Under the pieces are notes generated by a model. The model saw only the letters and a list, made by a program, of their open reading frames with translations, did not search any database and had not been told where the DNA came from. A stretch of 64,000 bases of DNA from Akkermansia muciniphila (GTDB taxonomy: Bacteria > Verrucomicrobiota > Verrucomicrobiia > Verrucomicrobiales > Akkermansiaceae), in NCBI RefSeq assembly GCF_040616545.1, contig NZ_CP156688.1, forward strand, positions 2,294,001 to 2,358,000, read 5' to 3'. The position numbers and the translations under genes are program-made. How positions within the stretch are numbered: position 1 is the stretch's first letter; the number at the start of each line of letters is the position of its first letter. Shown here one piece after another: positions 9,487-59,666 of the stretch.

Positions 9487-10668
9487 TTATTTGACTGCTG
9501 CCACCGCTTTCTGGGCGGCTTCGTCCAGGTTGTCGGCGGGGATGATGGCAATGCCGCTGTCTGCGAGGATTTTCTTGCCGATTTCCACGTTGGTGCCTTC
9601 CAGGCGGACGACGAGCGGGATTTTCATGTCGATGTTTTTCGCCGCGGCCACAATGCCCTGGGCGATGACGTCACAGCGCATGATGCCGCCGAAGATGTTG
9701 ACCAGAAGGGCCTTCACATTCTTGTCGCTGGTGAGGATGCGGAACGCGTTGGTTACCATTTCCTCCGTGGCGGAACCGCCTACGTCCAGGAAGTTGGCGG
9801 GCTCCCCGCCGTAGTATTTGATGATGTCCATCGTGGCCATGGCCAGGCCGGCGCCGTTCACCATGCAGCCGATGTTGCCATCCAGGCCGATGTAGTTCAG
9901 GTCATACTTGCCGGCTTCCACTTCACGGGGGTCTTCTTCCGTTTCATCCCGCATTTCCATGATTTCCGGGTGGCGGTACAGGGCGTTGTCGTCAAAGTTG
10001 AATTTGGCGTCCAGCGCGCACACGCGGTCGTCCGTGGTGACCACGAGGGGGTTGATTTCCACCAGGGAGCAGTCCAGGGCGGTGAAGAGCTTGTAAACGT
10101 TGGTGATGAGCTTGGTGGCCTGGCGGAGCAGGGGGCCGGTCAGGCCCAGGGCCACGGCGATCTTGAGAGCCTGGAAGGGTAGGATGCCCAGGGCCGGGTC
10201 AATGTGTTCGCGGATGATGGCTTCCGGCCGGGTGGCGGCCACTTCTTCAATGTCCATGCCGCCTTCCGTGCTGGCTACGATGACGGGGCATTCACGGGCG
10301 CGGTCCTGGAGAATGGCGAAGTAGCATTCCTTTTTCAGGTCCACGGCTTCCGCCACCATGATCTTGCTGACCAGCTTGCCGGTTTCCCCGGTCTGCTTGG
10401 TAACCAGAACCTGGTTCAGCATCTTGCCGGCCACATCTTCCACTTCTTCCACGGAGTCAACGACGTGCACGCCGCCCTTGAAGCCGTTTTTGAAGGTGCC
10501 TTTGCCACGTCCGCCAGCGTGTACCTGTGCCTTAACTACGTATTGGGAGACGCCCATGTCCCGGGCTATTTGTGCTGCTTCCTGGGCGGTAGCGGCGGCG
10601 ATGCCCTTGGGGGTAGCCACGCCAAAGCGCTCAAAGAGTTGTTTTGCTTGATATTCGTGAATGTTCAT
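9487..10668 (-). CDS. sucC: Succinyl-CoA ligase (ADP-forming), beta subunit
   Basis: 393 aa from the ATG at 10668 ([17 protein letters not shown], the canonical SucC N-terminus); an in-frame ATG 21 bases upstream is less likely. An ATP-grasp domain fills the N-terminal half ([19 protein letters not shown]…). The C-terminal flavodoxin-like half has [21 protein letters not shown] and [12 protein letters not shown], both conserved around the nucleotide and phosphohistidine site. First gene of the two-gene sucCD operon. Confidence 0.97.
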
Positions 10669-10870
10669 GACAGTGGGCCGTTCGGCCAAATGTTTGCGAA
10701 AGAAAGGCTATGCCTGTTTTTTGTGCCGGTCAAGGGAGAATGGTTTGGTCTTTTGATTTTTTGTCCGGGGGATTCATGGAGCGCCTTTGGAAATCAAAGA
10801 AGACAGAAGGCTTGACTGCATGCTTAAAGATTGTGAAACTTTCCTCTCATTTTTCCGTATTATATCTTTT

Positions 10871-12169
10871 ATGAAAATTTACCGTCCTTCCGACACCTGT
10901 TTTGACGAGATGAAAAGCCGGATGAACCGCCGCGCCCTCCCGGAGGATTCCGTAAGGGATACCGTGAATGCTATTATCCGGGACGTTTCCGCGCGCGGGG
11001 ACGAGGCCCTTTTTGATTACGCCGCCAGGTTTGACAAGGTGGAGCTGGACCCTTCCTCCCTGTTTGTGACGGAAGAAGAGCTGGCGGAGGCGGAAGCCGC
11101 GGTGGAGGATTCCGTGAAGGAGGCCATTGCCGCCTCCCTGGCCAATATCCATTATTTTTCAGACCGCAGCCGCAGGCAGGACTGGTCCGGCGTAAACGCG
11201 CAGGGAGTGGAGGTGGCGGAGCGCTTCCTGCCGTATGACCGCGTGGGCATTTATATTCCCGGCGGAAAGGCTCCCCTGGTGTCCACGTCCATCATGACGG
11301 GCGGTTTTGCCCAGGCCGCCGGCGTGCGGGAGATTGTGGCCGCTACGCCCTGCGGGCCGGACGGACGGGTGAATCCCGCTCTTTTATACGCATTGAAGGC
11401 TTCCGGCGCTACGGAGATTATTAAAGCAGGCGGAGCCCAGGCGATCGCTGCCCTGGCGCTGGGGACGGAGAGCGTGAAGCCGGTGGAAAAGATTTTCGGC
11501 CCCGGCAACCGTTTTGTCGTGGAGGCCAAGCGTCAGCTGGTGGGAGCCGTCGCCATTGACTTGCTGCCCGGCCCCAGTGAAGTGATGGTGCTGGCGGATG
11601 AGACCGCGGATGCGGAGTTTCTGGCTGCGGACCTGCTGGCGCAGGGGGAACACGGCCCGGACAGCGTGGTGGTGTTTGTCACCACGTCGGAAACGCTGCT
11701 GGAGCAGGTAGAGGCGGAGGTGGAGCGCCAGGCCGCCCTGCTGAGCCGCGGAGCAATTATCCGGGAGGTGCTGGACAAGCACGCTTACGGTTTTCTGGTC
11801 TCTTCCATCCGGGAAGGCGTGGACCTGGTGAACGCCTTTGCCCCGGAGCACCTGGTGCTCGTCACGCGGGATGAAGACGCCGTGCTGGACGGCATCCGCA
11901 CGGCGGGCGCCATTTACGCCGGCGCTCTTTCCACAGTAGCCTGCGGGGATTTTCTGGCGGGGCCCAGCCATACGCTGCCCACCGGAGGGGCCGGCAAGTC
12001 CTTTTCCGGACTGCGGGCGGACCAGTTTCAGCGGCGCACCAGCGTGGTGCGGATGAACCGGGATTCCGTGCTTAAATCAGCCCCGTATGTGGCGGAGTTC
12101 GCCAGGGTGGAGGGGCTGGACGCCCACAACCACTCCCTCCAGGTCCGCGCCGCGCGCGTTGACCGGTAA
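10871..12169 (+). CDS. hisD: Histidinol dehydrogenase
   Basis: 432 aa from the ATG at 10871. An upstream in-frame ATG at 10787 would add 28 residues unlike the family, so it was not used. The enzyme oxidises L-histidinol to L-histidine with two NAD+ and is zinc-dependent. Family signatures: VGIYIPGGKAPLVSTSIMT, KIFGPGNRFVVEAKRQL, DLLPGPSEVMVLAD, the catalytic Glu-His in QGEHGPDS, and GPSHTLPTGGAGKSFSGL near the C-terminus. It is not beside other his genes here. The following tetR-like gene starts 27 bases downstream. Confidence 0.97.
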   Translation: MKIYRPSDTCFDEMKSRMNRRALPEDSVRDTVNAIIRDVSARGDEALFDYAARFDKVELDPSSLFVTEEELAEAEAAVEDSVKEAIAASLANIHYFSDRSRRQDWSGVNAQGVEVAERFLPYDRVGIYIPGGKAPLVSTSIMTGGFAQAAGVREIVAATPCGPDGRVNPALLYALKASGATEIIKAGGAQAIAALALGTESVKPVEKIFGPGNRFVVEAKRQLVGAVAIDLLPGPSEVMVLADETADAEFLAADLLAQGEHGPDSVVVFVTTSETLLEQVEAEVERQAALLSRGAIIREVLDKHAYGFLVSSIREGVDLVNAFAPEHLVLVTRDEDAVLDGIRTAGAIYAGALSTVACGDFLAGPSHTLPTGGAGKSFSGLRADQFQRRTSVVRMNRDSVLKSAPYVAEFARVEGLDAHNHSLQVRAARVDR

Positions 12170-12196
12170 TCCAGACTTTCCCCACCTACTCCCCCC

Positions 12197-49051: not shown

Positions 49052-49112
49052 GCTGTCAAAAAAGATGAGAGAATTCTTCTTTCGTAAGGTGATACGTAGG
49101 AGAACAATGAGT

Positions 49113-49142
49113 TTGAAAAACATATTTCTAAAAAAATATTTA
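49113..49142 (+). promoter_or_regulatory. Candidate promoter of the serine recombinase
   Basis: TTGAAA (49113-49118), 18-base spacer, TATTTA (49137-49142) in A+T-rich sequence, 68 bases before the ATG. Weak matches are expected by chance here. Confidence 0.3.
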
Positions 49143-49209
49143 TGAAATTTTGGCGTTGTTTTTCATTGATGATGGAATTTTTCTGGAAGCCTAACCCCAT
49201 TGAACGACC

Positions 49210-49830
49210 ATGAACTACGGTTATATCAGAGTTAGCAGTGATAAACAAACTGTTGAAAATCAGCGCTTTGAAATCAATAACTTCTGCATGCGCGAAAATA
49301 TCCGCATTGATGGGTGGATAGAAGAAACGATCAGCGGAACGAAAGCCTATAATAAACGGCAACTGGGTAATCTTCTGAAAAGAGTTCAGAAAGGTGATCT
49401 CATCATCTGTGCGGAACTTTCCCGCCTTGGTAGAAATCTGTTTATGATTATGGAGATTCTCAACATTTGCATGGGGAGAGAATGCAGAGTCTGGACGATC
49501 AAAGATAATTATCGCCTGGGGGATGATATTCAAAGCAAGGTTCTTGCTTTCGCTTTCGGCTTATCTGCTGAGATTGAGCGTAATCTTATCAGCCAGCGTA
49601 CCAAGGAGGCCTTGGCGCGTAAAAAGGCAGAAGGGGTTATCCTTGGAAGGCCTAAAGGCAGAAAATCGGATCCATCCAAATATAAGTTGTCCGGCAAGCT
49701 GTCTTTGATACAAGGACTTTTGGCAGAAGGTGTTTCAAAACGTCAAATAGCAAAAATATGTAAGGTGGATCGTAACACCTTAGCCAGATATTTAAGAGAA
49801 TATTCCTGTAGAGAAATGCTTGAAGCTTAA
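49210..49830 (+). CDS. Serine site-specific recombinase (Mpi/Hin-type DNA invertase)
   Basis: 206 aa. The resolvase/invertase catalytic domain has the nucleophile Ser in GYIRVSSDKQT (residue 9 or 10), then ELSRLGRNLFMI, and the E-helix FAFGLSAEIERNLISQRTKEAL. A C-terminal helix-turn-helix binds the site (GVSKRQIAKICKVDRNTLARYLRE, ~175-198). The N-terminus closely recalls the Mpi-type invertases of Bacteroides, from memory. It lies 30 bases upstream of the 334-bp inverted repeat and reads toward it. It is therefore the best candidate for flipping the methyltransferase specificity segment. Base composition is A+T-rich, unlike infC upstream, consistent with transfer. Confidence 0.9.
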   Translation: MNYGYIRVSSDKQTVENQRFEINNFCMRENIRIDGWIEETISGTKAYNKRQLGNLLKRVQKGDLIICAELSRLGRNLFMIMEILNICMGRECRVWTIKDNYRLGDDIQSKVLAFAFGLSAEIERNLISQRTKEALARKKAEGVILGRPKGRKSDPSKYKLSGKLSLIQGLLAEGVSKRQIAKICKVDRNTLARYLREYSCREMLEA

Positions 49831-49860
49831 CTAGCCTTCTGATTCCTCAAAATTTAAGCA

Positions 49861-50194
49861 TCAAAAAATTGAGCGATTTTGTTCAGCAGAATCATACTAT
49901 TTGCTCCTTTGAGAGCGATGAAAGCTGGGTCATCCTTTCTCCCATTGAGCAGAGCATCAAACGCAAGATTGAAGCCGTCGGAACGCCACTCAAGGATTGG
50001 GATATTCAAATTTACCGTGGTGTATTAACAGGCTGTAATGAAGCTTTCATTATTTCAACCGAGAAAAGGGATGAAATCCTTGCCAATTGCCAAACAGCGA
50101 GTGAGAGAAGTAGAACAGCTGAACTAATACGACCGATTTTGCGAGGTCGCGATATCAAACGATACGGGTACGATTGGGCAGGGTTGTGGTTAAT
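49861..50194 (+). repeat. 334-bp perfect inverted repeat, left copy
   Basis: Identical, base by base on reading, to the reverse complement of 51822-52155. It begins TCAAAAAATTGAGCG and ends GTGGTTAAT. The flanking bases differ at both edges. It encodes the same ~111 residues in both copies, in frame. Confidence 0.97.
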
Positions 50195-50711
50195 AGCCAC
50201 ATTCCCCGCATGTCATTATAACATAGAGGACTATCTTGCTGTAAAAAATTACCTACTTTCTATCGGCATAGAACGATTAGAGCAAACAGGAAAAACTCAT
50301 ATTGTTAATGGTGAAAAAATCAAAGCTCGAAAAAAAACCTGTCATGAATGGTTTGAAACGCAAGATAGCATTAGCTATTGGGAGGATTTCTATAAGCCGA
50401 AAATATTTTACGCTGATATTACCCAAGATTTAAATTTTTGCAAATGTAATGAGGTTATGTTCTGTAATAATACTACCTACTTCATTACATCTAATAGTCA
50501 GAATCTACCTGAACACTTAATAACAACATTAAATTCTAAACTTATAAATTGGTATTACAGGACACTATCTGTGCAGTTGGGTAAAAATGCTATTCGAATG
50601 TTTTCTATATATGTATTAAATATACCTATACCTAAAATTATAATTGGAAATATTTATGAAACATATAATCTTTCAAATGAAGAGATCGATTTTATAGAAC
50701 AAAAAAAATGA
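49869..50711 (+). pseudogene. Silent alternative C-terminal specificity cassette of the methyltransferase
   Basis: 280 codons beginning with a TTG inside the repeat. Its first ~109 residues (LSDFVQQNHTICSFES…) are identical to residues ~896-1004 of the methyltransferase on the other strand. The remaining ~171 residues are a different target-recognition region (ATFPACHYNIEDYL…ISYWEDFYKPKIFYADI) ending NEEIDFIEQKK, parallel to DEDEIDYIESL-type ends of the active gene. It has no own ATG or obvious ribosome site and lacks all catalytic motifs. It is best read as a stored cassette that becomes the 3' end of the methyltransferase after inversion. The frame is intact, so it is not decayed. Confidence 0.9.
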
Positions 50712-51241
50712 TCTAATTTTCTTTGATTTATGTATATTCTATTGATACATTTATCATTCATTAAACCCAAAACTTTCGTATCGAATGAATTCAAATATTC
50801 AATGATATTTAAATTTTCAGGAATATAAATTTCTTCGAAATTAGATAGAATAATCTGGGACATTGTTTTTCTTCGCTACCAACAGTGTTCAAATGACAAC
50901 TATAAAAGGCTGTGACTGTTTATCAATGGTGTGAAATGAATAAACCAGGAAGATTGACCTGAAGTATATAATTTCGAATTTCTTTAATAAATTGTAGATA
51001 TATTGCGTTCATCCTCTATCAAGAATAGCAGGATTTTTTAACTAATATACTGCATACCACATAAAAGAGATAAATTCTTCCTAGTATAAAAGCACAGACT
51101 TGTAAACAATCATTGAATCATTGCATCATTGAATCATCTAATATTAGATAAAAACGAAAAAGAAGATATTTCAGATTTACTAATTCTCATTAATTTTATC
51201 ATATAATTTTTGATTTACTAAAATATCTTAATACTTATTAG
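50712..51241. other. A+T-rich spacer inside the predicted invertible segment
   Basis: No convincing gene. A 69-codon minus-strand frame (50863-50654, MSQIILSNFEEIYIPENL…) overlaps the cassette end and is unrecognised. A short direct repeat ATTGAATCAT occurs at 51112-51121 and 51128-51137. Confidence 0.5.
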
Positions 51242-54200
51242 TTATAAAGATTCAATATAATCTATTTCATCTTCTGATAATCCATAAATATTGTAAATTA
51301 TTTTATCAATTATGATGTCGTTATTTATATCAATCACGCTATTTAATTTACTTAGGACAAAATTCGGCACGTTTTTGGGAACTGGTAACTGATTTACAAA
51401 CATTGGTTTATATTCAAAATATCCGCCATTTCTTGTGACTCCCAACTTCCTTATGTAGTAATCAGCTAATCTTGAATTGAGAACACCAAGTAGAAATTTA
51501 CTTGCAGGAACTAACATATTTGATGGAGCGTTGATAAAACTATCATTTTCTACCATTGTATAACTTGCACGAAGGTTAAGATTTCCCCATACAATTTTTG
51601 GCTTACTAAAATCCTCCCAATATTTAGCACCCCAACGCTGCATTGCATACCATTCATATCGTATTCCTGTTTCAGTTTTATTACGTTTAGATAGAGCTTC
51701 TTTGTATTGCAACATATGGGCATAAACAGCGGAATATTGTTCTCGAAATGCCTCTTCAGCTTTGTCAGATGCTCCGGTTATACTAGTATCAAACTGATAC
51801 GGAAAATGCCATGGAATATAAATTAACCACAACCCTGCCCAATCGTACCCGTATCGTTTGATATCGCGACCTCGCAAAATCGGTCGTATTAGTTCAGCTG
51901 TTCTACTTCTCTCACTCGCTGTTTGGCAATTGGCAAGGATTTCATCCCTTTTCTCGGTTGAAATAATGAAAGCTTCATTACAGCCTGTTAATACACCACG
52001 GTAAATTTGAATATCCCAATCCTTGAGTGGCGTTCCGACGGCTTCAATCTTGCGTTTGATGCTCTGCTCAATGGGAGAAAGGATGACCCAGCTTTCATCG
52101 CTCTCAAAGGAGCAAATAGTATGATTCTGCTGAACAAAATCGCTCAATTTTTTGACACTATCTTTGTTTTGTCTGCTAGTGACAACACATCTTGTCTGAT
52201 GTTTATTTCCCGATTTTGAGAAAAGCAGAATGTTCGTATCAACTGTTGCACTTTCAAAGATTTTGACACCAGCAAAGTCGATAAGAAGAATAGGGTTAGT
52301 GTTTTTGGACAAAAAGCCTCTGGTGCAATCTCCATATCCAGCACGCATCCATTTATTGGAGGTGATGTAGCAGAGGTGTCCATTTTCTTTTAGAAGTTGC
52401 CATCCCCGTTCGTAGAATAAACAATAGATGTCCCCTGTTTTTTTGAAGGTTTGGAATCCGCAATGTTCATAGCGTTTAGAGAGTTCACCGCCATTATTTT
52501 GCAATTGAATATAAGGCGGATTGCCAATGACGATATCGAAGCCGTCGTTTACCCCAAACATCCACTCCGGGTCAAAGAAGGAGGAAACAGCATTCTGGTC
52601 GTAAGGATTCCAGTCAATTAGTTTTTTAAGCTTCTCTACCAAATCTCCTTGAGGAGAATTCTTTACTCTTTCTCGGCTGATGGCTTTACGGCATTGAGCA
52701 ATTTGAGTATCAATGCGTTCGCGTTCCTTTTTATTAATATCTACCTTGAACAGCGAGTTGTTTGCTTGAGATGATTCGAAGCCAAGCAAATCCATTTGAA
52801 GCTCCTGAGAAGTAGAATCGACCCAGTTTTCGTGAACGTATTTGTGCCGTTCTGCTTGTAATTCGGCAATACGTCGTTCGTTTGCCTGAATTTTACCGTC
52901 ATCGGGAGTGATACTCAAGTGAGTTAAACGGGAGATGATTTGTAGGCGTTTCTTTTCATCTGCCTTTCTGAGACGTTTTTTTTCAGAAGCCGTTTTTGAG
53001 TGGAAGTGCCGATGCCTGATCTCCCGGAGTTGTTCCCTTAATTCCGTAAGATTTTTATCATCCAGATTAAGTTGACTTTCGTCTTCTCTATTTAGAGAAA
53101 GGAGAGAGTCGGTAGAGACAAATTTTGTTTCCAGGTTGGGAAGGGTAGGTATTCCGAAATTGTCTTTAGCAGGATTTTTTTCACAGTCGCAAATAAGAGA
53201 GATAAAGAAACGAAGTTTGGTAATTTGAGCGGCTATACTCTGAATGTCGCTGCCGTAGAGACAATTTTCAATGACAGAAATTTTGAGATTATAAACACTT
53301 TCTTCCGGATGGATTTTTTGAAGAATATCTACCATGCGGATTAAAAGCCCCATAGGGAAGGCGCCTGAACCGCAAGCGGGATCAATGACTTTGATTTGTT
53401 TCAGCTTGTCAGCGATGTTTTTATATTTTTCTTCTAGGGAAGGCTCTTTCTCAAAATCATCAGCGAACAGGGATTGGACGAGTTCCGAATCACCCAGATA
53501 AGCCTTTAGGCTTTCATCCACCATGTAATTGACAATTTCTCTGGGCGTATAGAAAGAGCCGCTCTGGTTGCGTGCTGTTTCTTTGGTTTCCGGGTTATAA
53601 GCACCTAAAAGGTTTTCAAAAACTTTGCCAAGTAGCTCCGGATCAAGGGCGACCTGTTGTTCATTGGGAGTGTTTTCTTCAATAGTGAAGTTATATCGGT
53701 TTAGAATGGAGAATAGGCCTTTATCCTTTTTAAAGAATAATTCATTGGGAATGAATGCTCTATATTTGAAGCTGCCATTTGGAGATTTTTTATCGTTACG
53801 GCTAAATCCATCATCATAATAAGGATTGTCAACACCGTCGAATCTCTTGATTTTATCAAGGCATTCAAACAATCCTCCGTTGAGGAAAGGAACTTCAGAG
53901 AACAGGTCTATGATTTGTTCTTCTGAAATGGAAAAAAATTCCGAATATCGATAGAGTGTTTTTAAGTCTTTATCCCCATCAATTTTTGCAAAACCACGTT
54001 TTTTCCCTTCTTCATCAATGACAGCTCTATTAAGTGTGGCAAAAAAGAGATTTTGAAGGATTGCATTGTAATAGTTCCCCTGGGTTTTTGAATTGGGAGC
54101 GAAGTCTTTTAATATGGAGCTAAGCCTGTTTTCATCAAAAAGAGCATTAGGAACTAAGTCCTTCTGTTTGATAAACCACACGAACATGATGCGGGTAATC

Positions 54201-54832
54201 ATACGGATAATTTTGACATCAATATTTTCCCGATCATCGTCAGGAGTAGAAGTTTTGTTTGGGAAAGTAATGCCTGCTTCGTTGCTTACCGCCCACTGGT
54301 ACCATTCAAACAATTCTCTATAAAATTGTTTGGTAAGCGCTTCCACGGAGAAGGCTTCCATCAGAGATTCAAAAGTAATGCCTTTTTGTTGCAAAATTAA
54401 AAAACGGCTTACGGGCGTATTATAGTAATTATTACCATCACCGAATACATAGGTATATCGTTTGGGGGCAGTCTTCAGCTCTTTGATATCACTGATGAAA
54501 GAAAGTCGCCAGTGGTCACCGCTGTCAAATACCACAAGAGCTGCGTCAAATGCCCATTTTGTAAAAGACCGCACAAGGTTTCTAAGTCCGACTTTTTTAT
54601 TGGCAACAGAGCCGGAGTTGATTTGATAATGAAACAAGCCAATATTAAAATGGTCAGTCGTTTCGAGTTGACCAAGATACCAGCCTTCATCAGCGGTATT
54701 GCCGTTATCAATTCTTTCAGGAATATTTTTCAGCGTTTGGGCATGGAAGAAATTTTGGAGAATGTGAGTCCACGAATCGGAATTGAAAGGGGTCTGAAAG
54801 ATGGTTCTCAGTTGTTCAACGGTATAGGACAT
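51242..54832 (-). CDS. Eco57I-type adenine methyltransferase with invertible C-terminal specificity region
   Basis: 1196 aa. Long N-terminal region (~1-430), then a gamma-class N6-adenine methyltransferase: SAM motif I DPACGSGAFPMGLL at residue 484 and catalytic NPPY at 771-774, with a charged helical insertion between them (~600-720). TaqI/Eco57I-like sequence follows (ICYITSNKWMRAGYG-type, then LIDFAGVKIFESATVDTNILLF). The last ~300 residues form the predicted target-recognition region. Residues ~893-1004 lie in the 334-bp inverted repeat and ~1005-1196 are the exchangeable part. It follows the helicase gene by 11 bases in one operon. No PD-(D/E)xK nuclease motif was obvious at the N-terminus, so cleavage, if any, probably belongs to the helicase protein. 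BREX PglX is an alternative family comparison. Confidence 0.92.
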   Translation of the reverse strand: MSYTVEQLRTIFQTPFNSDSWTHILQNFFHAQTLKNIPERIDNGNTADEGWYLGQLETTDHFNIGLFHYQINSGSVANKKVGLRNLVRSFTKWAFDAALVVFDSGDHWRLSFISDIKELKTAPKRYTYVFGDGNNYYNTPVSRFLILQQKGITFESLMEAFSVEALTKQFYRELFEWYQWAVSNEAGITFPNKTSTPDDDRENIDVKIIRMITRIMFVWFIKQKDLVPNALFDENRLSSILKDFAPNSKTQGNYYNAILQNLFFATLNRAVIDEEGKKRGFAKIDGDKDLKTLYRYSEFFSISEEQIIDLFSEVPFLNGGLFECLDKIKRFDGVDNPYYDDGFSRNDKKSPNGSFKYRAFIPNELFFKKDKGLFSILNRYNFTIEENTPNEQQVALDPELLGKVFENLLGAYNPETKETARNQSGSFYTPREIVNYMVDESLKAYLGDSELVQSLFADDFEKEPSLEEKYKNIADKLKQIKVIDPACGSGAFPMGLLIRMVDILQKIHPEESVYNLKISVIENCLYGSDIQSIAAQITKLRFFISLICDCEKNPAKDNFGIPTLPNLETKFVSTDSLLSLNREDESQLNLDDKNLTELREQLREIRHRHFHSKTASEKKRLRKADEKKRLQIISRLTHLSITPDDGKIQANERRIAELQAERHKYVHENWVDSTSQELQMDLLGFESSQANNSLFKVDINKKERERIDTQIAQCRKAISRERVKNSPQGDLVEKLKKLIDWNPYDQNAVSSFFDPEWMFGVNDGFDIVIGNPPYIQLQNNGGELSKRYEHCGFQTFKKTGDIYCLFYERGWQLLKENGHLCYITSNKWMRAGYGDCTRGFLSKNTNPILLIDFAGVKIFESATVDTNILLFSKSGNKHQTRCVVTSRQNKDSVKKLSDFVQQNHTICSFESDESWVILSPIEQSIKRKIEAVGTPLKDWDIQIYRGVLTGCNEAFIISTEKRDEILANCQTASERSRTAELIRPILRGRDIKRYGYDWAGLWLIYIPWHFPYQFDTSITGASDKAEEAFREQYSAVYAHMLQYKEALSKRNKTETGIRYEWYAMQRWGAKYWEDFSKPKIVWGNLNLRASYTMVENDSFINAPSNMLVPASKFLLGVLNSRLADYYIRKLGVTRNGGYFEYKPMFVNQLPVPKNVPNFVLSKLNSVIDINNDIIIDKIIYNIYGLSEDEIDYIESL
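51822..52155 (-). repeat. 334-bp perfect inverted repeat, right copy
   Basis: Reverse complement of 49861-50194, lying inside the methyltransferase gene. The 1627 bases between the two copies are the predicted invertible segment. Confidence 0.97.
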
Positions 54833-54843
54833 AGCGGTAATTT

Positions 54844-57800
54844 TTAGATAAAGGTTTCAGAAATAATAATTTGGGGATCGGAAATGTTGATAGCCTGATG
54901 GCGGTCTTCTTTACTCATCGTGCGGTATTCGTCCAATAGTTTCGAGATCCTATTTTGAATCTTGTATTCGTTTGTGGCTATTCTTCCCCGGTCGTTTTTG
55001 TATTCACGGGACAAGTCCCTGATACGGCGTGAAAGTTTGGAGTAAATACCTTCGTCAATATACTTGATCAGAGTATCGCATTCTTTTATCAGAAGAAGAT
55101 TATCCTTATGAATTTGTTTTATTGTAGTGAGGAATTTCCGAGCCTCCTGTGACGGTTTGTTGAGTGTACTCTTGATGTCCTTTATAGGGGAAGTATCTGC
55201 CGCCTGAATGTATTCAGACTGATATTTAGCCAGAGCTTGAGTGACGTGTTGATAATGATTATCTGCGTTAGAGAAAGACGCCGGTTTTTCTTCCGGTTTG
55301 GCTCTAAGGTAATCTACGGCATCAAGGAATCCGATGACTTCAACATGTGAGTTATCTGCCAAATAAAATTCAGTTTTTACGTTAGAAGAAACAAATACAA
55401 TAGATTTACTGCGATGATGGCCTGTATCACGCATCACTCGGCTTTTCATGGGCAGTTTTTTTATTTTGTGATAAAGCTCTCTATCGTTATTGTAGAGATC
55501 TCTTATTTCCCGCAGAAGGGCTATTTTTTTGTCAACACTATCCTTGATGGTGCTGTCAAAAAGTTTGAACTGTTTAACAATTTCTTCCAGTGAATAGATT
55601 TGGGCATCTTCGCCGAAGGCTGAGTGAAAACCTTGGAGCTTGACCAGAGCATTGTGGTACAGGTTGATTGCTTGGTTGCCTGGCTGAGAAGGATAGAACA
55701 TGTAATTATATATGAAGTCGGCAACAGAGCCTATTCTATTGACTCGTCCGATACGCTGCATCAGCTTGGTAGCATTCCAAGGCGAATCGTAGTTGACAAT
55801 CACATGAGAACGATGAAGATTGACACCCTCTGCCAATACATCAGAAGTAATGATAATATTGTATTGATTTTCCTGAATCGAACTGTTAGCATCGAAATTC
55901 TTTTTAATAGTTTCTCTTAAAGTATTTCTGTTTTTTGCCGTTACCAGGAGCACATCTTTGCGGCCAAGTTCATTTGTCAAGCGGTCCTGCAAGTAGGTTA
56001 GGGTATCGACGCTTTCTGAGAATAAAACGAGTTTACCGGAAGTATTAGTCTGTTGAGAGAGCAAGTCGTTTTCAAGCTTATCTTTGAATAGATCAAATTT
56101 AGGGTCTTCAGTTTCCTTCTCCCAGTCAGCTTTCAATCCTTCCAGGAGCAGTTTGTCTTCCCATAGCTTTTCCAAAAAACACGAATTAAAAGCATTTGCC
56201 GGGAAGACATTCCCTTTTTTTGAATCCTTTTTTTTGTTCAGATAATCTATAATATTGTCCAGACCCCATCCTTTTGCCAGAAGGTCCGTGATGTTTATTT
56301 CTGGGGCAATAATCACCTTGTCGGCCTCAAACATGTGAATCATGTCCGTGGTTATTTTGAGCAGAGTAGTCAGGGATTTTTTGAAAGCGTGGAAACTGCT
56401 TTCAAGACGTTTAACCATATGGACACGATAAATTCCCGCGAGAATCGGACCGGATCGAATTGCTAACTTGTAATTGGGAGACTGGTGTTCCGGTTTCAGG
56501 AATTCTATGGCTCTGTAACGGGCATAATTGAGATGTGTAGGCACGTTTTCATCAGATAGCGCACTCAGAGTAGAATAGAAGCGATTACAAGTATCTTCAT
56601 TCATTCGGTAGCTGAGCGCTTCAGGAGGAAGAATTTTGGGGAAAATAATTCCTTGTGATTCGATATCTTCTTTATAAGACGAGTCATTTAGAATATTGTT
56701 TCTGGTACGGCGGACGGTGACTTTATCAATAACTTTTTCTCTTATCTTTTCATAAATTTTTTCAACTCTTTTAGTTACGTCAGTTTCTTTTTCTTTGTTA
56801 TTTTTGATTAATTTCTTGTACTCTTTAATAAATGGGATGAAAAATGCTTCCAGATTGGGAATGCCGTCAATAGTACAGTTACGACTATTTTGGAAGAGAA
56901 GAAGCAGATTGAGTAAATCTTCCGGGCTGTTATTAAGGGGTGTAGCTGATAACAGCATGACCTTCTTTTGCAGGCTATTCAGCAGACCTTCATTTAAGCA
57001 GGAAGATTTGCATATTTTTTGCAGAGCGTCGTATTTACCTGAGCCGTCGTTGCGGAATCCATGAGCTTCATCAACAATGATAAGATCAAATTCTTCTTTA
57101 TCCTTATACTGATTTTTGCCGTTCAATATTTTGGAAAGGCTCCCATTTGTAATGAATTGGGCGTTTTTTTGAATATTGAACAGACGGAAGGTTTCTTTCC
57201 AGTTTTCTTCCAACGCGGGGGGATAGATTACTAAAATGTTGGTTCGTTTGCCGTTGGCTTCAACAAAACGTTTGGCAATCATGGTGGCAATCATGGTCTT
57301 ACCAAGACCAACAACGTCGGCAAGAAATAAACCATGATGCTGAAGCAGCATTTGATAACCTTGAATAACGGCATCTTTTTGGTATTTCAGTTCTTTGACA
57401 TCCTTTGGGAGTTGCAGCGTGAAATCCTCTTCTACCTGATCGCCGAACATATCAATCAGGACTTTGATATATAGTTCATAGGGTGTTGGTTGGATGCCGA
57501 GATAGGTTTCTTTTGTGCATTTTGCTATGTCCTCAGGAGAAAGGGGAATTGCCGCATCCCACAGTTTTTGGAACTCGCATAAACAGTATTTTACGTCGTC
57601 ATAGTCCTTCATGGCGACGTTTAATTCATATCTGGGGGGAGTGGTGATTCCTAATCCTGAATCAGATATGTTAGAGGATCCCATGATGACCCAGCCGTCG
57701 GTATGCTCATTGTGATTGTTGGGCAGGCATAGGTAGAATTTGGCATGCAAGTTTTTAGTCGCATGGATTTTCATTTCCAGCCGACCTGACATCAGGTCTT

Positions 57801-58140
57801 CATGCATTTGCAAAATTCCCCGTTCAATCAAAGGATCATATTTTGCATTGATAACATCCTCGTTGAAATGATCACAATAAATGTCTTTGGATTTTGCTGC
57901 GTCTGCCAAAAACATATTTGCTTTATTATGTTTGCGGAAAATGTTATCAATGTTAATTCCAACAAGGATTTTGATTTCAGATACATCGCTCAATTGTTCT
58001 CTTAATTTGAAGTATCCGGATGATCTGAAAAATCCTGAAACAGCCAAAAATTTGTCAAACGATGCCATTTGGGAAGCAATGCCGGTTAATTTGTCAAAGA
58101 GAGTATGACCAGTCTCATTATTGAAAAACTTGGAGCTCAT
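54844..58140 (-). CDS. PLD-nuclease / SNF2-type helicase defence protein
   Basis: 1098 aa. Residues ~1-200 form a phospholipase D-like nuclease domain: HAKFYLCLPNN near residue 137 and WVIMGSSNISDSGLG supply an HxK…GSxN site. A SNF2-type superfamily 2 helicase follows: Walker A LADVVGLGKTMIATMIAKRF at about 272, DEAH in LIIVDEAHGFRND at about 345, motif III LLSATPLNNSPEDL, motif V SDVLAEGVNLHRSHVIVNYD and motif VI QRIGRVNRIGS. A helical C-terminal ~250 residues is unrecognised. PLD plus SNF2 helicase beside an adenine methyltransferase recalls parts of DISARM (DrmC, DrmD, DrmMI) but in a two-gene form. Translocation with PLD cleavage of unmethylated DNA is the inferred role. First gene of the operon. 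Confidence 0.9.
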   Translation of the reverse strand: MSSKFFNNETGHTLFDKLTGIASQMASFDKFLAVSGFFRSSGYFKLREQLSDVSEIKILVGINIDNIFRKHNKANMFLADAAKSKDIYCDHFNEDVINAKYDPLIERGILQMHEDLMSGRLEMKIHATKNLHAKFYLCLPNNHNEHTDGWVIMGSSNISDSGLGITTPPRYELNVAMKDYDDVKYCLCEFQKLWDAAIPLSPEDIAKCTKETYLGIQPTPYELYIKVLIDMFGDQVEEDFTLQLPKDVKELKYQKDAVIQGYQMLLQHHGLFLADVVGLGKTMIATMIAKRFVEANGKRTNILVIYPPALEENWKETFRLFNIQKNAQFITNGSLSKILNGKNQYKDKEEFDLIIVDEAHGFRNDGSGKYDALQKICKSSCLNEGLLNSLQKKVMLLSATPLNNSPEDLLNLLLLFQNSRNCTIDGIPNLEAFFIPFIKEYKKLIKNNKEKETDVTKRVEKIYEKIREKVIDKVTVRRTRNNILNDSSYKEDIESQGIIFPKILPPEALSYRMNEDTCNRFYSTLSALSDENVPTHLNYARYRAIEFLKPEHQSPNYKLAIRSGPILAGIYRVHMVKRLESSFHAFKKSLTTLLKITTDMIHMFEADKVIIAPEINITDLLAKGWGLDNIIDYLNKKKDSKKGNVFPANAFNSCFLEKLWEDKLLLEGLKADWEKETEDPKFDLFKDKLENDLLSQQTNTSGKLVLFSESVDTLTYLQDRLTNELGRKDVLLVTAKNRNTLRETIKKNFDANSSIQENQYNIIITSDVLAEGVNLHRSHVIVNYDSPWNATKLMQRIGRVNRIGSVADFIYNYMFYPSQPGNQAINLYHNALVKLQGFHSAFGEDAQIYSLEEIVKQFKLFDSTIKDSVDKKIALLREIRDLYNNDRELYHKIKKLPMKSRVMRDTGHHRSKSIVFVSSNVKTEFYLADNSHVEVIGFLDAVDYLRAKPEEKPASFSNADNHYQHVTQALAKYQSEYIQAADTSPIKDIKSTLNKPSQEARKFLTTIKQIHKDNLLLIKECDTLIKYIDEGIYSKLSRRIRDLSREYKNDRGRIATNEYKIQNRISKLLDEYRTMSKEDRHQAINISDPQIIISETFI

Positions 58141-58191
58141 AGAAGTGGGAATTTTTACAAAAATGGATAAGAGAAAGATTATTTAATACCA

Positions 58192-58218
58192 ATAATATTT
58201 TAGTGTCTTCTGTGTCAA
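58192..58218 (-). promoter_or_regulatory. Candidate promoter of the helicase-methyltransferase operon
   Basis: On the minus strand TTGACA (58218-58213) and TATTAT (58197-58192) with a 15-base spacer, 51 bases before the ATG at 58140. Both boxes are good; the spacing is short. Confidence 0.5.
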
Positions 58219-58436
58219 TGAAATGTTGCTATCAGTGGGCATTCTAGTGAAAGGAAAAGTGGGTTGGAATGAGGAAAGAAGCAAAAGCAGAAATAGAAGG
58301 ATATAAGAGATGTGAAGAAGTTTTGTATAAAAGACATATGTTTGTATTTACCTTACGCTTCCCGCATGTTCTCTCCTGCTTCTTTTCATCCTGTTCTGAT
58401 TGGAACAATTCGATCGTTAAGTCCTTTTTTACAGCG

Positions 58437-59666
58437 TTATCCGGTTTCCTTTTCCTTCCTGAATGGCTGTATCCGACACATGGTGGCGGTGCGCCAGAGC
58501 CATTCCAGGGGGCCGTACAGGAAATAGCTTAGCCACAGGCGGCAGGCCCAGGCTTGAAGCAGGAAGACGGCTACCGCCGCGCAGAGGCAGGCCCACGGCC
58601 CCATGTCCTGCGCCAGACCGAGACCCCACCCGAAGAAGAGGAACGTGAATACCAGCGTCTGGGTGACGTAGCACGTCAGCGTGCATTTGCCGGCGCTGCT
58701 GAGCAGTCTGAAGGGCAGGGGTAGTCCGGGATGGGTGAAGAGCAGGACGGCGGCGGAGACAAAGGCCGCGGCGTAGGCGAGGTTTTCCCATTGGACGAGA
58801 AGGTGTCGCAGGTCCGCTCCCAGCGGGTAGTCCAGCCGGGTGGGGAGGAACAGCCGCGCGAGCAGAAGCGCCAGAAACAGCGTTCCGGAGATTCCCAGCA
58901 TCCGCAGGAACAGGCGGCGTTTGTTGGCGGTGTCCACAAAGACATGCCATCTCCCCGCCAGCATTCCCAGGATGAAGAGGCCCAGCGTTTGCCAGATGCG
59001 GCCGCTGAGCAGGAGGAACTGCCATTTGCCTGTCTGTCCCTGCGTCAGGTTCCAGAGGGCGGCTTCACTCCAGCTCCCGTGTTCATACAGGAATTCCCGC
59101 GAAGGGCCTGCCGCCGGGGATGCGGGCTGGAACCAGCCGGAGGAATGGGGCCATATATCCGCCATCCCGGTGCGGGACAGCGTGTCCATGAAGGAGATGG
59201 GCTGCATCAGGCACAGCAGGCAGAGGATGACGAGAAGAGGCGTGCCGCGTTTGTACAGGGCTACCAGGGCAAAGCCGAGCACGCCGAAGATGGTGAGGAT
59301 GTCCCCGTCATAAAAAAGGGTGTGCGCCAGCCCAAACAGAAACAGGAGCGCCAGCCGCCACATGAAGCGTTTCCGGAAGTCGACGCCCTTCTGCTCCTGC
59401 CTGTCCAGCTGGATGAAGAAGCTGAGGCCGAACAGGAAGGAGAAGAGAAGGAAGGATTTGCTGACAAAGAGGTATTCATAAACCCAGTCCGCCGCGCTGT
59501 TGGCCGCGGCCTGCCATCCCTCCGCCGGAGGAATGGGAAGGTACAAGTTGAAGTGATCGTGCGCATGCACGATGACGATGCCCAGCAGGGCCAGCGCCCG
59601 GAGGATGTCCAGAATGGTGATGCGCGCCGCCTGCGGGGGCGTTCCGGCGGGAGTCCGGGCGGTCAT
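58437..59666 (-). CDS. DUF418 (YeiB-like) membrane protein
   Basis: 409 aa with about ten membrane helices. The N-terminus ITILDILRALALLGIVIVHAHDH is typical of the YeiB/DUF418 family. The family C-terminal domain is visible as LLSSAGKCTLTCYVTQTLVFTFLFFGWGLG and YGPLEWLWRTATM. The function of the family is unproven; transport or acyl transfer has been suggested. It starts 3 bases after the dxr stop, so the two are co-transcribed. It marks the right edge of the A+T-rich island. Confidence 0.87.
   Translation of the reverse strand: MTARTPAGTPPQAARITILDILRALALLGIVIVHAHDHFNLYLPIPPAEGWQAAANSAADWVYEYLFVSKSFLLFSFLFGLSFFIQLDRQEQKGVDFRKRFMWRLALLFLFGLAHTLFYDGDILTIFGVLGFALVALYKRGTPLLVILCLLCLMQPISFMDTLSRTGMADIWPHSSGWFQPASPAAGPSREFLYEHGSWSEAALWNLTQGQTGKWQFLLLSGRIWQTLGLFILGMLAGRWHVFVDTANKRRLFLRMLGISGTLFLALLLARLFLPTRLDYPLGADLRHLLVQWENLAYAAAFVSAAVLLFTHPGLPLPFRLLSSAGKCTLTCYVTQTLVFTFLFFGWGLGLAQDMGPWACLCAAVAVFLLQAWACRLWLSYFLYGPLEWLWRTATMCRIQPFRKEKETG

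What the first reader, a model, noticed from the sequence alone, without database searches (positions are those of the whole stretch)
49210..54832. Invertible target-recognition switch in an Eco57I-type methyltransferase
A perfect 334-bp inverted repeat (49861-50194 / 51822-52155) lies in frame inside both the methyltransferase gene and a promoterless second 3' end of opposite orientation. Inversion of the 1627-bp core would replace residues ~1005-1196 by ~171 different residues and give an intact ~1175-aa enzyme. The catalytic motifs stay outside the flip, so only DNA specificity should change. An Mpi-like serine recombinase lies 30 bases outside the repeat. Type I hsdS shufflons and BREX pglX inversions are known parallels; a serine-invertase-linked switch in a two-gene PLD-helicase system is, to my knowledge, not a described type.
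Basis: partly seen in the sequence, partly recalled or inferred. Interest (0 to 1): 0.9.

Follow-up and report, generated by a model that had tools for sequence, protein, structure and literature searches.

The report
Shuffling switch for DNA-marking defence enzyme
A bacterial DNA-marking defence enzyme sits next to a DNA-flipping enzyme that appears able to swap two separate halves of its target-reading part, so one gene could read up to four DNA words or be switched off, and related bacteria carry traces of such swaps.

Summary
The 334-bp perfect inverted repeat, the convergent second 3' end and the Mpi-type serine recombinase are real. In 24 recombinase-linked relatives, a gene-wide scan of synonymous-codon identity puts the top 25 of 728 six-codon windows in three clusters: S0 at the repeat's outer edge, S1 near its inner end, S2 inside the target-recognition domain. 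Natural rearrangements break there: three loci show S1 x S2 inversions with the crossover at the same dinucleotide, and two Lactococcus plasmids hold the same arm plus half-domain in opposite positions, with endpoints at S0 and S2. N- and C-halves of the domain are exchanged independently between loci. In silico this window can make four full-length enzymes plus a truncated OFF form. The model would explain three m6A motifs of Prevotella intermedia 17F (GGNYAG, CCNYAG, GGYGAB), only one of which was assigned to a gene (PMC5608340), and predicts CCYGAB. Inversions in Type II R-M genes are, as I recall, in print (Milman 2023, not held), so this is a new variant. No reads or methylation data of this strain were available.

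The parts
49210..49830 (+). mpi: serine recombinase (206 aa), Mpi family
   Evidence: NF009949 337.2 bits, cut-off 272; Resolvase domain; aligns to DNA-invertase 4m6f/3uj3 with Ser9 on Ser9
49869..50711 (+). OFF cassette: arm + alternative TRD (N-half of family 'a', ATFPACHYNI; C-half 'B'), 280-aa reading frame from TTG
   Evidence: ORF; TaqI_C; halves placed
49861..50194 (+). outer inverted-repeat arm (OFF copy)
   Evidence: 100% complementary to 51822-52155
51822..52155 (-). outer inverted-repeat arm (ON copy), MTase residues 893-1004
52135..52149 (-). site S0, ON copy (AATTGAGCGATTTTG on the gene strand)
   Evidence: position; codon constraint; edge of ON/OFF identity in 29 loci; exchange endpoint in Lactococcus plasmids
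49867..49881 (+). site S5, the mirror copy of S0 in the OFF cassette
51875..51889 (-). site S1, ON copy (ATACGACCGATTTTG), predicted crossover dinucleotide 51882-51883
   Evidence: natural S1 x S2 junctions in L095, L115, L119; codon constraint; position
50127..50141 (+). site S4, mirror copy of S1, predicted crossover 50133-50134
51606..51622 (-). site S2 inside the ON TRD (TATTGGGAGGATTTTAG, encodes YWEDF), predicted crossover 51616-51617
50376..50396 (+). site S3, mirror copy of S2 in the OFF TRD, predicted crossover 50381-50382
51242..54832 (-). Eco57I-type N6-adenine MTase, 1196 aa, ON gene with N-half 'b' (YIPWHFP) and C-half 'A'
   Evidence: Pfam Eco57I, N6_Mtase, TaqI_C; model pLDDT 77.6; closest folds CamA, BrxX, BseCI
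51623..51826 (-). ON TRD N-half (family b)
51245..51622 (-). ON TRD C-half (A)
   Evidence: 82% identical to the C-half of L106, whose N-half is of family a
50190..50375 (+). OFF TRD N-half (family a)
50376..50708 (+). OFF TRD C-half (B)
54844..58140 (-). PLD-nuclease-like + SNF2 helicase, 1098 aa, likely restriction partner
   Evidence: Pfam PLDc_2 (26.3 bits, just under its 27-bit cut-off), SNF2-rel_dom, Helicase_C; PADLOC C3a139 'HKD+Snf2' 2.6e-42
49061..58454 (.). about 9.4-kb inserted module (left edge between 48988 and 49061)
   Evidence: infC and the next gene lie about 540 bp apart in G114 (same species), G049, G017 and G115; GC 0.25-0.43 against about 0.60 in the flanks

Best explanation
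[quoted passage not shown] The MTase reads its target through a C-terminal domain made of an N-half and a C-half. A mirror-image spare copy with different halves lies downstream. Mpi is inferred to act at short sites embedded in codons, in three inverted pairs: S0/S5 at the outer edge of the repeat, S1/S4 near its inner end, S2/S3 between the two halves. An S0/S5 or S1/S4 flip swaps both halves (1175 aa); an S2/S3 flip swaps only the C-half (1181 aa); both together give the fourth combination (1190 aa); an S1 x S2 flip inverts the N-half in place and truncates the enzyme at 986 aa (OFF). The PLD-helicase is the likely nuclease partner. Shown by sequence: sites, codon constraint, natural junctions, independent exchange of halves, four open frames. 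Inferred: that Mpi does it, that it is active in this strain, that the halves read separate parts of the target, that the pair restricts phage.
For: Unbiased codon scan: top 25 of 728 windows fall in S0, S1 and S2, best excess 0.53 against mean 0.05, sd 0.07. Junctions of three natural S1 x S2 inversions share the crossover dinucleotide CC/GG; in L119 and L115 the ON gene is truncated as predicted. Lactococcus plasmids NZ_CP016750 and NZ_PP589677: 496 bp at 99.2% identity in inverted positions, from S0 to S2, with the OFF-side flank 100% identical up to S0. 27 of 27 loci with both cassettes intact have Mpi; in the 25 whose N-halves could be classed, ON and OFF differ in family, and each of the three families occurs in both positions. 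C-half pairs of 55% identity or more: 64 with the same and 81 with a different N-half family. L066 and L093 hold two C-halves in swapped places (80% and 69% identity). Mpi is found with the sites: S1 core in 29 of 30 Mpi loci against 3 of 9 uncut loci without it. 18 of 23 contigs that end inside the MTase gene end in the 126-residue stretch of the arm. In the own genome the S1 site is exact only here.
Against: No reads, no second orientation and no methylome of this strain. Mpi activity is untested. L095 has both cassettes but no Mpi; L048 departs from the S1 core and L086 from the S0 core. Loci without Mpi are also more distant relatives, so that control is confounded. The C-halves of the two Lactococcus plasmids do not match each other, so one clean flip does not explain that pair. 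G028 has an Mpi with no arm found in 12 kb around it. R. microfusus motifs do not split into a clean 2 x 2, and its ON frame is broken in the draft. The OFF cassette model is poor, pLDDT 57.6.
Confidence: 0.82

Rival explanations
1. Two-state switch only: the whole 334-bp repeat is the recombination unit and flips one TRD for the other.
For: Perfect 334-bp arms in this window; a flip gives one intact alternative enzyme.
Against: Arms of other loci are often only 66-85% identical, yet keep three short constrained sites; N- and C-halves assort independently; extra lone C-halves in 7 of 16 loci annotated.
Confidence: 0.1
2. Inversion by homologous recombination between the arms; Mpi acts elsewhere.
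For: Long perfect arms would allow it; pneumococcal spnIII recombines without known site-specific recombinases (PMC6620402, title and abstract in the search listing only).
Against: S1 x S2 junctions share little beyond a dinucleotide; codon constraint at the sites; Mpi in 27 of 27 two-cassette loci; no other exact S1 site in the genome.
Confidence: 0.1
3. The OFF cassette is expressed as a separate specificity subunit that works in trans, like a half-HsdS.
For: It lies 38 bases downstream of mpi on the same strand, and many OFF arms read ATG at the edge of S0.
Against: In P. intermedia the second gene alone gave no methylated motif, and both genes together gave the same single motif (PMC5608340).
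Confidence: 0.08
4. A dead duplicate: the second 3' end is a leftover with no switching today.
For: Only one orientation of this locus can be seen here; the 530-bp spacer 50712-51241 is AT-rich and holds no recognisable TRD half.
Against: Both frames and all sites are intact; the arms are 100% identical.
Confidence: 0.08

Closest known systems
Gene-altering programmed inversions in Type II R-M systems (Milman, Yelin, Kishony 2023, NAR; recalled, not held; seen only as a reference in PMC10939037)
   Same: As I recall the abstract, inversions that alter Type II R-M genes were predicted and checked in long reads.
   Different: I could not check whether they describe this locus, the codon-embedded sites, half-TRD exchange, the OFF product or Mpi as the partner.
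Type I hsdS shufflons (e.g. S. pneumoniae spnIII/cod, PMC4948785, title and abstract in listing)
   Same: Inverted repeats shuffle TRDs and change methylation specificity.
   Different: Here one polypeptide holds MTase and TRD, the halves belong to one TaqI_C-type domain, and the linked enzyme is a serine recombinase; no hsdS, hsdM or hsdR gene was recognised among the four proteins scanned.
Pin17FIII locus of P. intermedia 17F and its homolog in R. microfusus (PMC5608340; section 14 part 2 and passages read)
   Same: MTase plus convergent second gene with a SNF2-family helicase upstream; several related non-palindromic m6A motifs.
   Different: No switch, recombinase or inversion is described there for this locus in the parts I read; the extra motifs were left open.
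Mpi of Bacteroides fragilis (PMC5903667 passage)
   Same: Same NCBIfam family, NF009949.
   Different: B. fragilis Mpi inverts at least thirteen scattered regions; here the exact S1 site occurs only at this locus.
BREX pglX and DISARM drmD/drmMI
   Same: Related MTase and helicase domains.
   Different: Scores far below the curated cut-offs.

Membership tests
Mpi-family serine recombinase (NF009949) | score over the curated cut-off | tested here: met
   337.2 against 272 bits
Mpi-family serine recombinase (NF009949) | catalytic serine in the resolvase domain | tested here: met
   Ser9 aligns with Ser9 of DNA-invertase 4m6f; that this serine is the catalytic one is recalled
Mpi-family serine recombinase (NF009949) | inverts DNA at its sites | not testable with these tools
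   needs an experiment
Eco57I / TaqI_C N6-adenine MTase | Eco57I MTase and TaqI_C specificity domains over the gathering score | tested here: met
   133.2 against 25.3 and 47 against 26.5 bits
Type IIG restriction enzyme | REase and MTase in one chain | tested here: inconclusive
   PADLOC REase_MTase_IIG 2.2e-129, but residues 1-135 show no clear ExK nuclease motif in the window protein by eye; no nuclease domain was hit in Pfam
BREX PglX | score over the NCBIfam cut-off | tested here: not met
   98.5 against 500 bits for BREX-1
DISARM DrmD | score over the NCBIfam cut-off | tested here: not met
   153 against 610 bits
Type I hsdS shufflon | HsdS as the shuffled gene, with HsdM and HsdR | tested here: not met
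   shuffled gene is an Eco57I MTase with a TaqI_C domain
Programmed TRD inversion (functional class) | both arrangements seen in natural relatives | tested here: met
   Lactococcus plasmids; N-half families in ON and OFF positions
Programmed TRD inversion (functional class) | both arrangements within one strain | not testable with these tools
   no reads available

The most novel reading that the evidence does not exclude
A nested three-site serine-recombinase shufflon that recombines two half-TRDs inside one MTase chain, with the crossover sites written into codons, giving 2 x 2 specificities plus an OFF state. The same design would account for the methylome of P. intermedia 17F as {GG, CC} x {NYAG, YGAB}: the cloned allele GGYGAB, its two one-inversion neighbours CCNYAG and GGNYAG, and a predicted fourth motif CCYGAB that needs two inversions.
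Probability: 0.6. Interest if true: 0.85.

Novelty: new variant of a known kind. Interest (0 to 1): 0.72.

Why it matters
If true, one MTase gene can be rebuilt into four readers of DNA by a local recombinase, without separate S subunits. It turns an open puzzle, several related m6A motifs with one assigned gene in P. intermedia 17F and R. microfusus, into a direct test, and it shows a natural modular split of a TaqI_C-type recognition domain that could map protein halves to bases. Similar loci are found in Bacteroidales and in scattered other phyla among the 80 loci kept, so the effect on phage defence and gene regulation in gut and oral bacteria may be wide.

Tried and rejected
Homologous recombination alone, a two-state switch, an in-trans S subunit and a dead duplicate were considered; see rivals. 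BREX and DISARM membership rejected on curated cut-offs. A palindrome scan of the arm found no strong dyad (best 8 of 13 pairs), so the sites were found by codon constraint and natural junctions instead. My S0 x S5 simulation cut at unmatched positions and gave a frameshifted product; it was discarded, which flips the whole repeat, gives the matched result. The OFF-cassette model (pLDDT 57.6) was not used. Viral-contig scan: 5 loci; L117 is identical to L064 over 19,167 bp and was dropped from counts. Phage records gave only distant relatives (29 records, none covering 80% of the query). Within-species flips could not be tested: one other genome of the species, G114, was seen and it lacks the module. 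Literature: ten searches; none listed showed this locus as a switch, but the library lacks most subscription papers and the 2023 NAR paper.

Rows left out: one search counts only loci where the script recovered both cassettes intact; L095, L115 and L119 (inverted or missing N-half), L064 (split arm) and L037, L038, L045 (contig ends in the OFF cassette) are outside the 27. In 'ON' means plus strand of the locus, so L027's arm is the one beside mpi, and 16 loci cut short were not used as controls. One search used 24 of the 40 aligned genes (the Mpi-linked ones).

Full report
What is there. The window (64 kb, GC 0.562) lies in a single-contig genome of 3,055,113 bases. Between infC and a DUF418-like gene lies a low-GC module. 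In G114 (same species), G049, G017 and G115 the two flanking genes are about 540 bp apart; the shared left flank ends between 48987 and 49060 and the right one starts at 58455 or 58461. The module holds mpi (+), the OFF cassette (+), an AT-rich spacer, the MTase (-) and a PLD-SNF2 helicase (-). The PLD call is weak by itself: PLDc_2 26.3 bits against a cut-off of 27, backed by PADLOC C3a139 'HKD+Snf2' at 2.6e-42.

The observation. The 334-bp repeat is exact and a full flip gives 1175 aa in frame. A second inverted repeat of 29 nt lies in the two TRDs.

Relatives. A search of 114 relatives found the MTase in 13. Mpi occurs in 4 of 386 genomes of the order, a sample of a larger group. G030 (L025) has the same layout with an N-half like the window's OFF one in the ON gene (49%) and a TRD like the window's ON one (56%) in the OFF place. 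A scan of named genomes kept 80 of 388 loci; 31 of these 80 carry Mpi. Of 23 contigs that end inside the MTase gene, 18 end at residues 885-1010, the arm, as expected where an assembler meets an inverted repeat or a mixed population.

Three sites. In a codon alignment of 86 arms two stretches keep the same codon where many synonyms would do: codons 895-901 and 980-985. I then scanned whole ON genes of 24 Mpi-linked loci, scoring synonymous-codon identity against each gene's own usage. Of 728 six-codon windows the top 25 all start at 890-897, 978-984 or 1068-1078. These are S0, S1 and S2. S2 is the YWEDF motif region; in 70 sites found by a DNA match, Tyr is TAT 70 times (that search favours such sites, one search does not). 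Within loci, ON and OFF sequences differ up to S0 and agree from there on, over 29 loci.

Natural junctions. In L095, L115 and L119 a stretch from S1 to S2 is inverted; both junctions in each locus pass from one site to the other at the dinucleotide CC. That is what a serine recombinase with a two-base overlap should leave (recalled). In L119 the ON frame stops eight residues after the crossover and in L115 at it; in L095 the change is in the OFF cassette and the ON gene is intact. L119's mpi is frameshifted in the contig, and L095 lacks it.

A pair of arrangements. Lactococcus plasmids NZ_CP016750.2 (described as pJM1F; PMC6458302 lists CP016750 as pJM1D) and NZ_PP589677.1 carry helicase, MTase, a convergent TaqI_C-type cassette and an identical Mpi protein accession. 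The ON arm and N-half of the first are 99.2% identical over 496 bp to the OFF copy of the second, in inverted position; the reverse pair is 85% identical. The OFF-side flanks are 100% identical up to S0 and diverge from there; identity of the exchanged piece ends at S2. The C-halves do not match, so more than one event is needed. A third plasmid has lost the OFF cassette and mpi.

Half-domains as modules. In 27 loci with both cassettes intact, all with Mpi, N-halves fall into three families; ON/OFF pairs are g/a 11, a/g 7, b/a 3, g/b 2, b/g 1, a/b 1, and a with an unclassed one 2. C-half pairs at 55% identity or more join the same N-half family in 64 cases and a different one in 81; pairs are not independent. 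Examples: the window's ON C-half is 82% identical to that of L106, whose N-half is of another family; L095 ON and L108 OFF share a 100% identical N-half with C-halves at 28%. Seven of 16 loci annotated in detail hold extra C-halves without an N-half. L066 and L093 have two C-halves in exchanged places.

Control. The S1 core is kept in 29 of 30 Mpi loci and in 3 of 9 uncut loci without Mpi (Fisher p 1.7e-4); the S0 core in 29 of 30 and 3 of 7 (p 2.5e-3). Loci without Mpi are more distant, so this is suggestive only. In the own genome only the two copies at this locus match S1 exactly; five more places have three mismatches, against 14 for the reversed control pattern.

Predicted products for this window: 1196 aa now; S1 x S4 1175; S2 x S3 1181; both 1190; S1 x S2 truncated at 986; S3 x S4 leaves the ON gene unchanged.

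Structure. The MTase model (pLDDT 77.6, pTM 0.64) matches CamA (Z 30.4, 400 aligned, rmsd 20.3), BrxX (27.8), BseCI (26.6), LlaGI (25.9, rmsd 4.0) and MmeI (23.8) (Foldseek). The high rmsd of the first rows means the domains align but their relative placement does not. By eye the N-terminal domain has no clear ExK motif in the window protein, so the nuclease may be the PLD-helicase; this is inference.

Methylome link. In PMC5608340 (section 14 part 2 read in full, other parts as passages) P. intermedia 17F has a homologous two-gene locus with an upstream SNF2 helicase and three m6A motifs, GGNYAG, CCNYAG and GGYGAB. The cloned MTase gives GGYGAB only; the second gene alone gives none; both give GGYGAB only. 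My reading: {GG, CC} x {NYAG, YGAB}, with the two unassigned motifs one inversion away and the missing CCYGAB two away. I have not seen the 17F sequence, so Mpi and the sites there are unchecked. For R. microfusus DSM 15922 (L100) I have: Mpi, both arms, S0 and S1 are present, but its motifs CCGACY, CCRGAG and SCCAAB do not split cleanly and its ON frame is broken in the draft.

Novelty. Ten paper searches found no description of this locus as a switch, but the library is partial. From memory, Milman et al. 2023 reported gene-altering inversions in Type II R-M systems; I could not read it. I therefore file this as a new variant of a known kind.

Noticed in passing
window 50712-51241: 530-bp spacer of 25% GC between the two convergent 3' ends, with a short repeated TCATTGAATCAT-like motif; no TRD half was recognised in it.
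   Followed up: partly
G028:C16:84161-84760 (L158): An Mpi relative (77%) with no repeat arm found in the 12 kb around it, while the MTase of the same genome lies on another contig.
   Followed up: partly
L063, L065, L072, L109: Loci with the same MTase body and Mpi but a different C-terminal region that the arm query does not match; probably another TRD architecture with its own switch.
   Followed up: no
L107 (Bacteroides xylanisolvens XB1A), about 10596-11534: A run of 939 N in the record falls inside the invertible segment, between two partial arms.
   Followed up: no
L064 (Porphyromonas canoris), 10413-12193: ON arm lacks codons 38-75 while codons 5-39 are present twice on the OFF side, as after unequal recombination between arms.
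   Followed up: no
NZ_PP589708.1 (L161): Lactococcus plasmid with the MTase locked: OFF cassette and mpi are gone and an annotated putative phage abortive infection gene follows.
   Followed up: no
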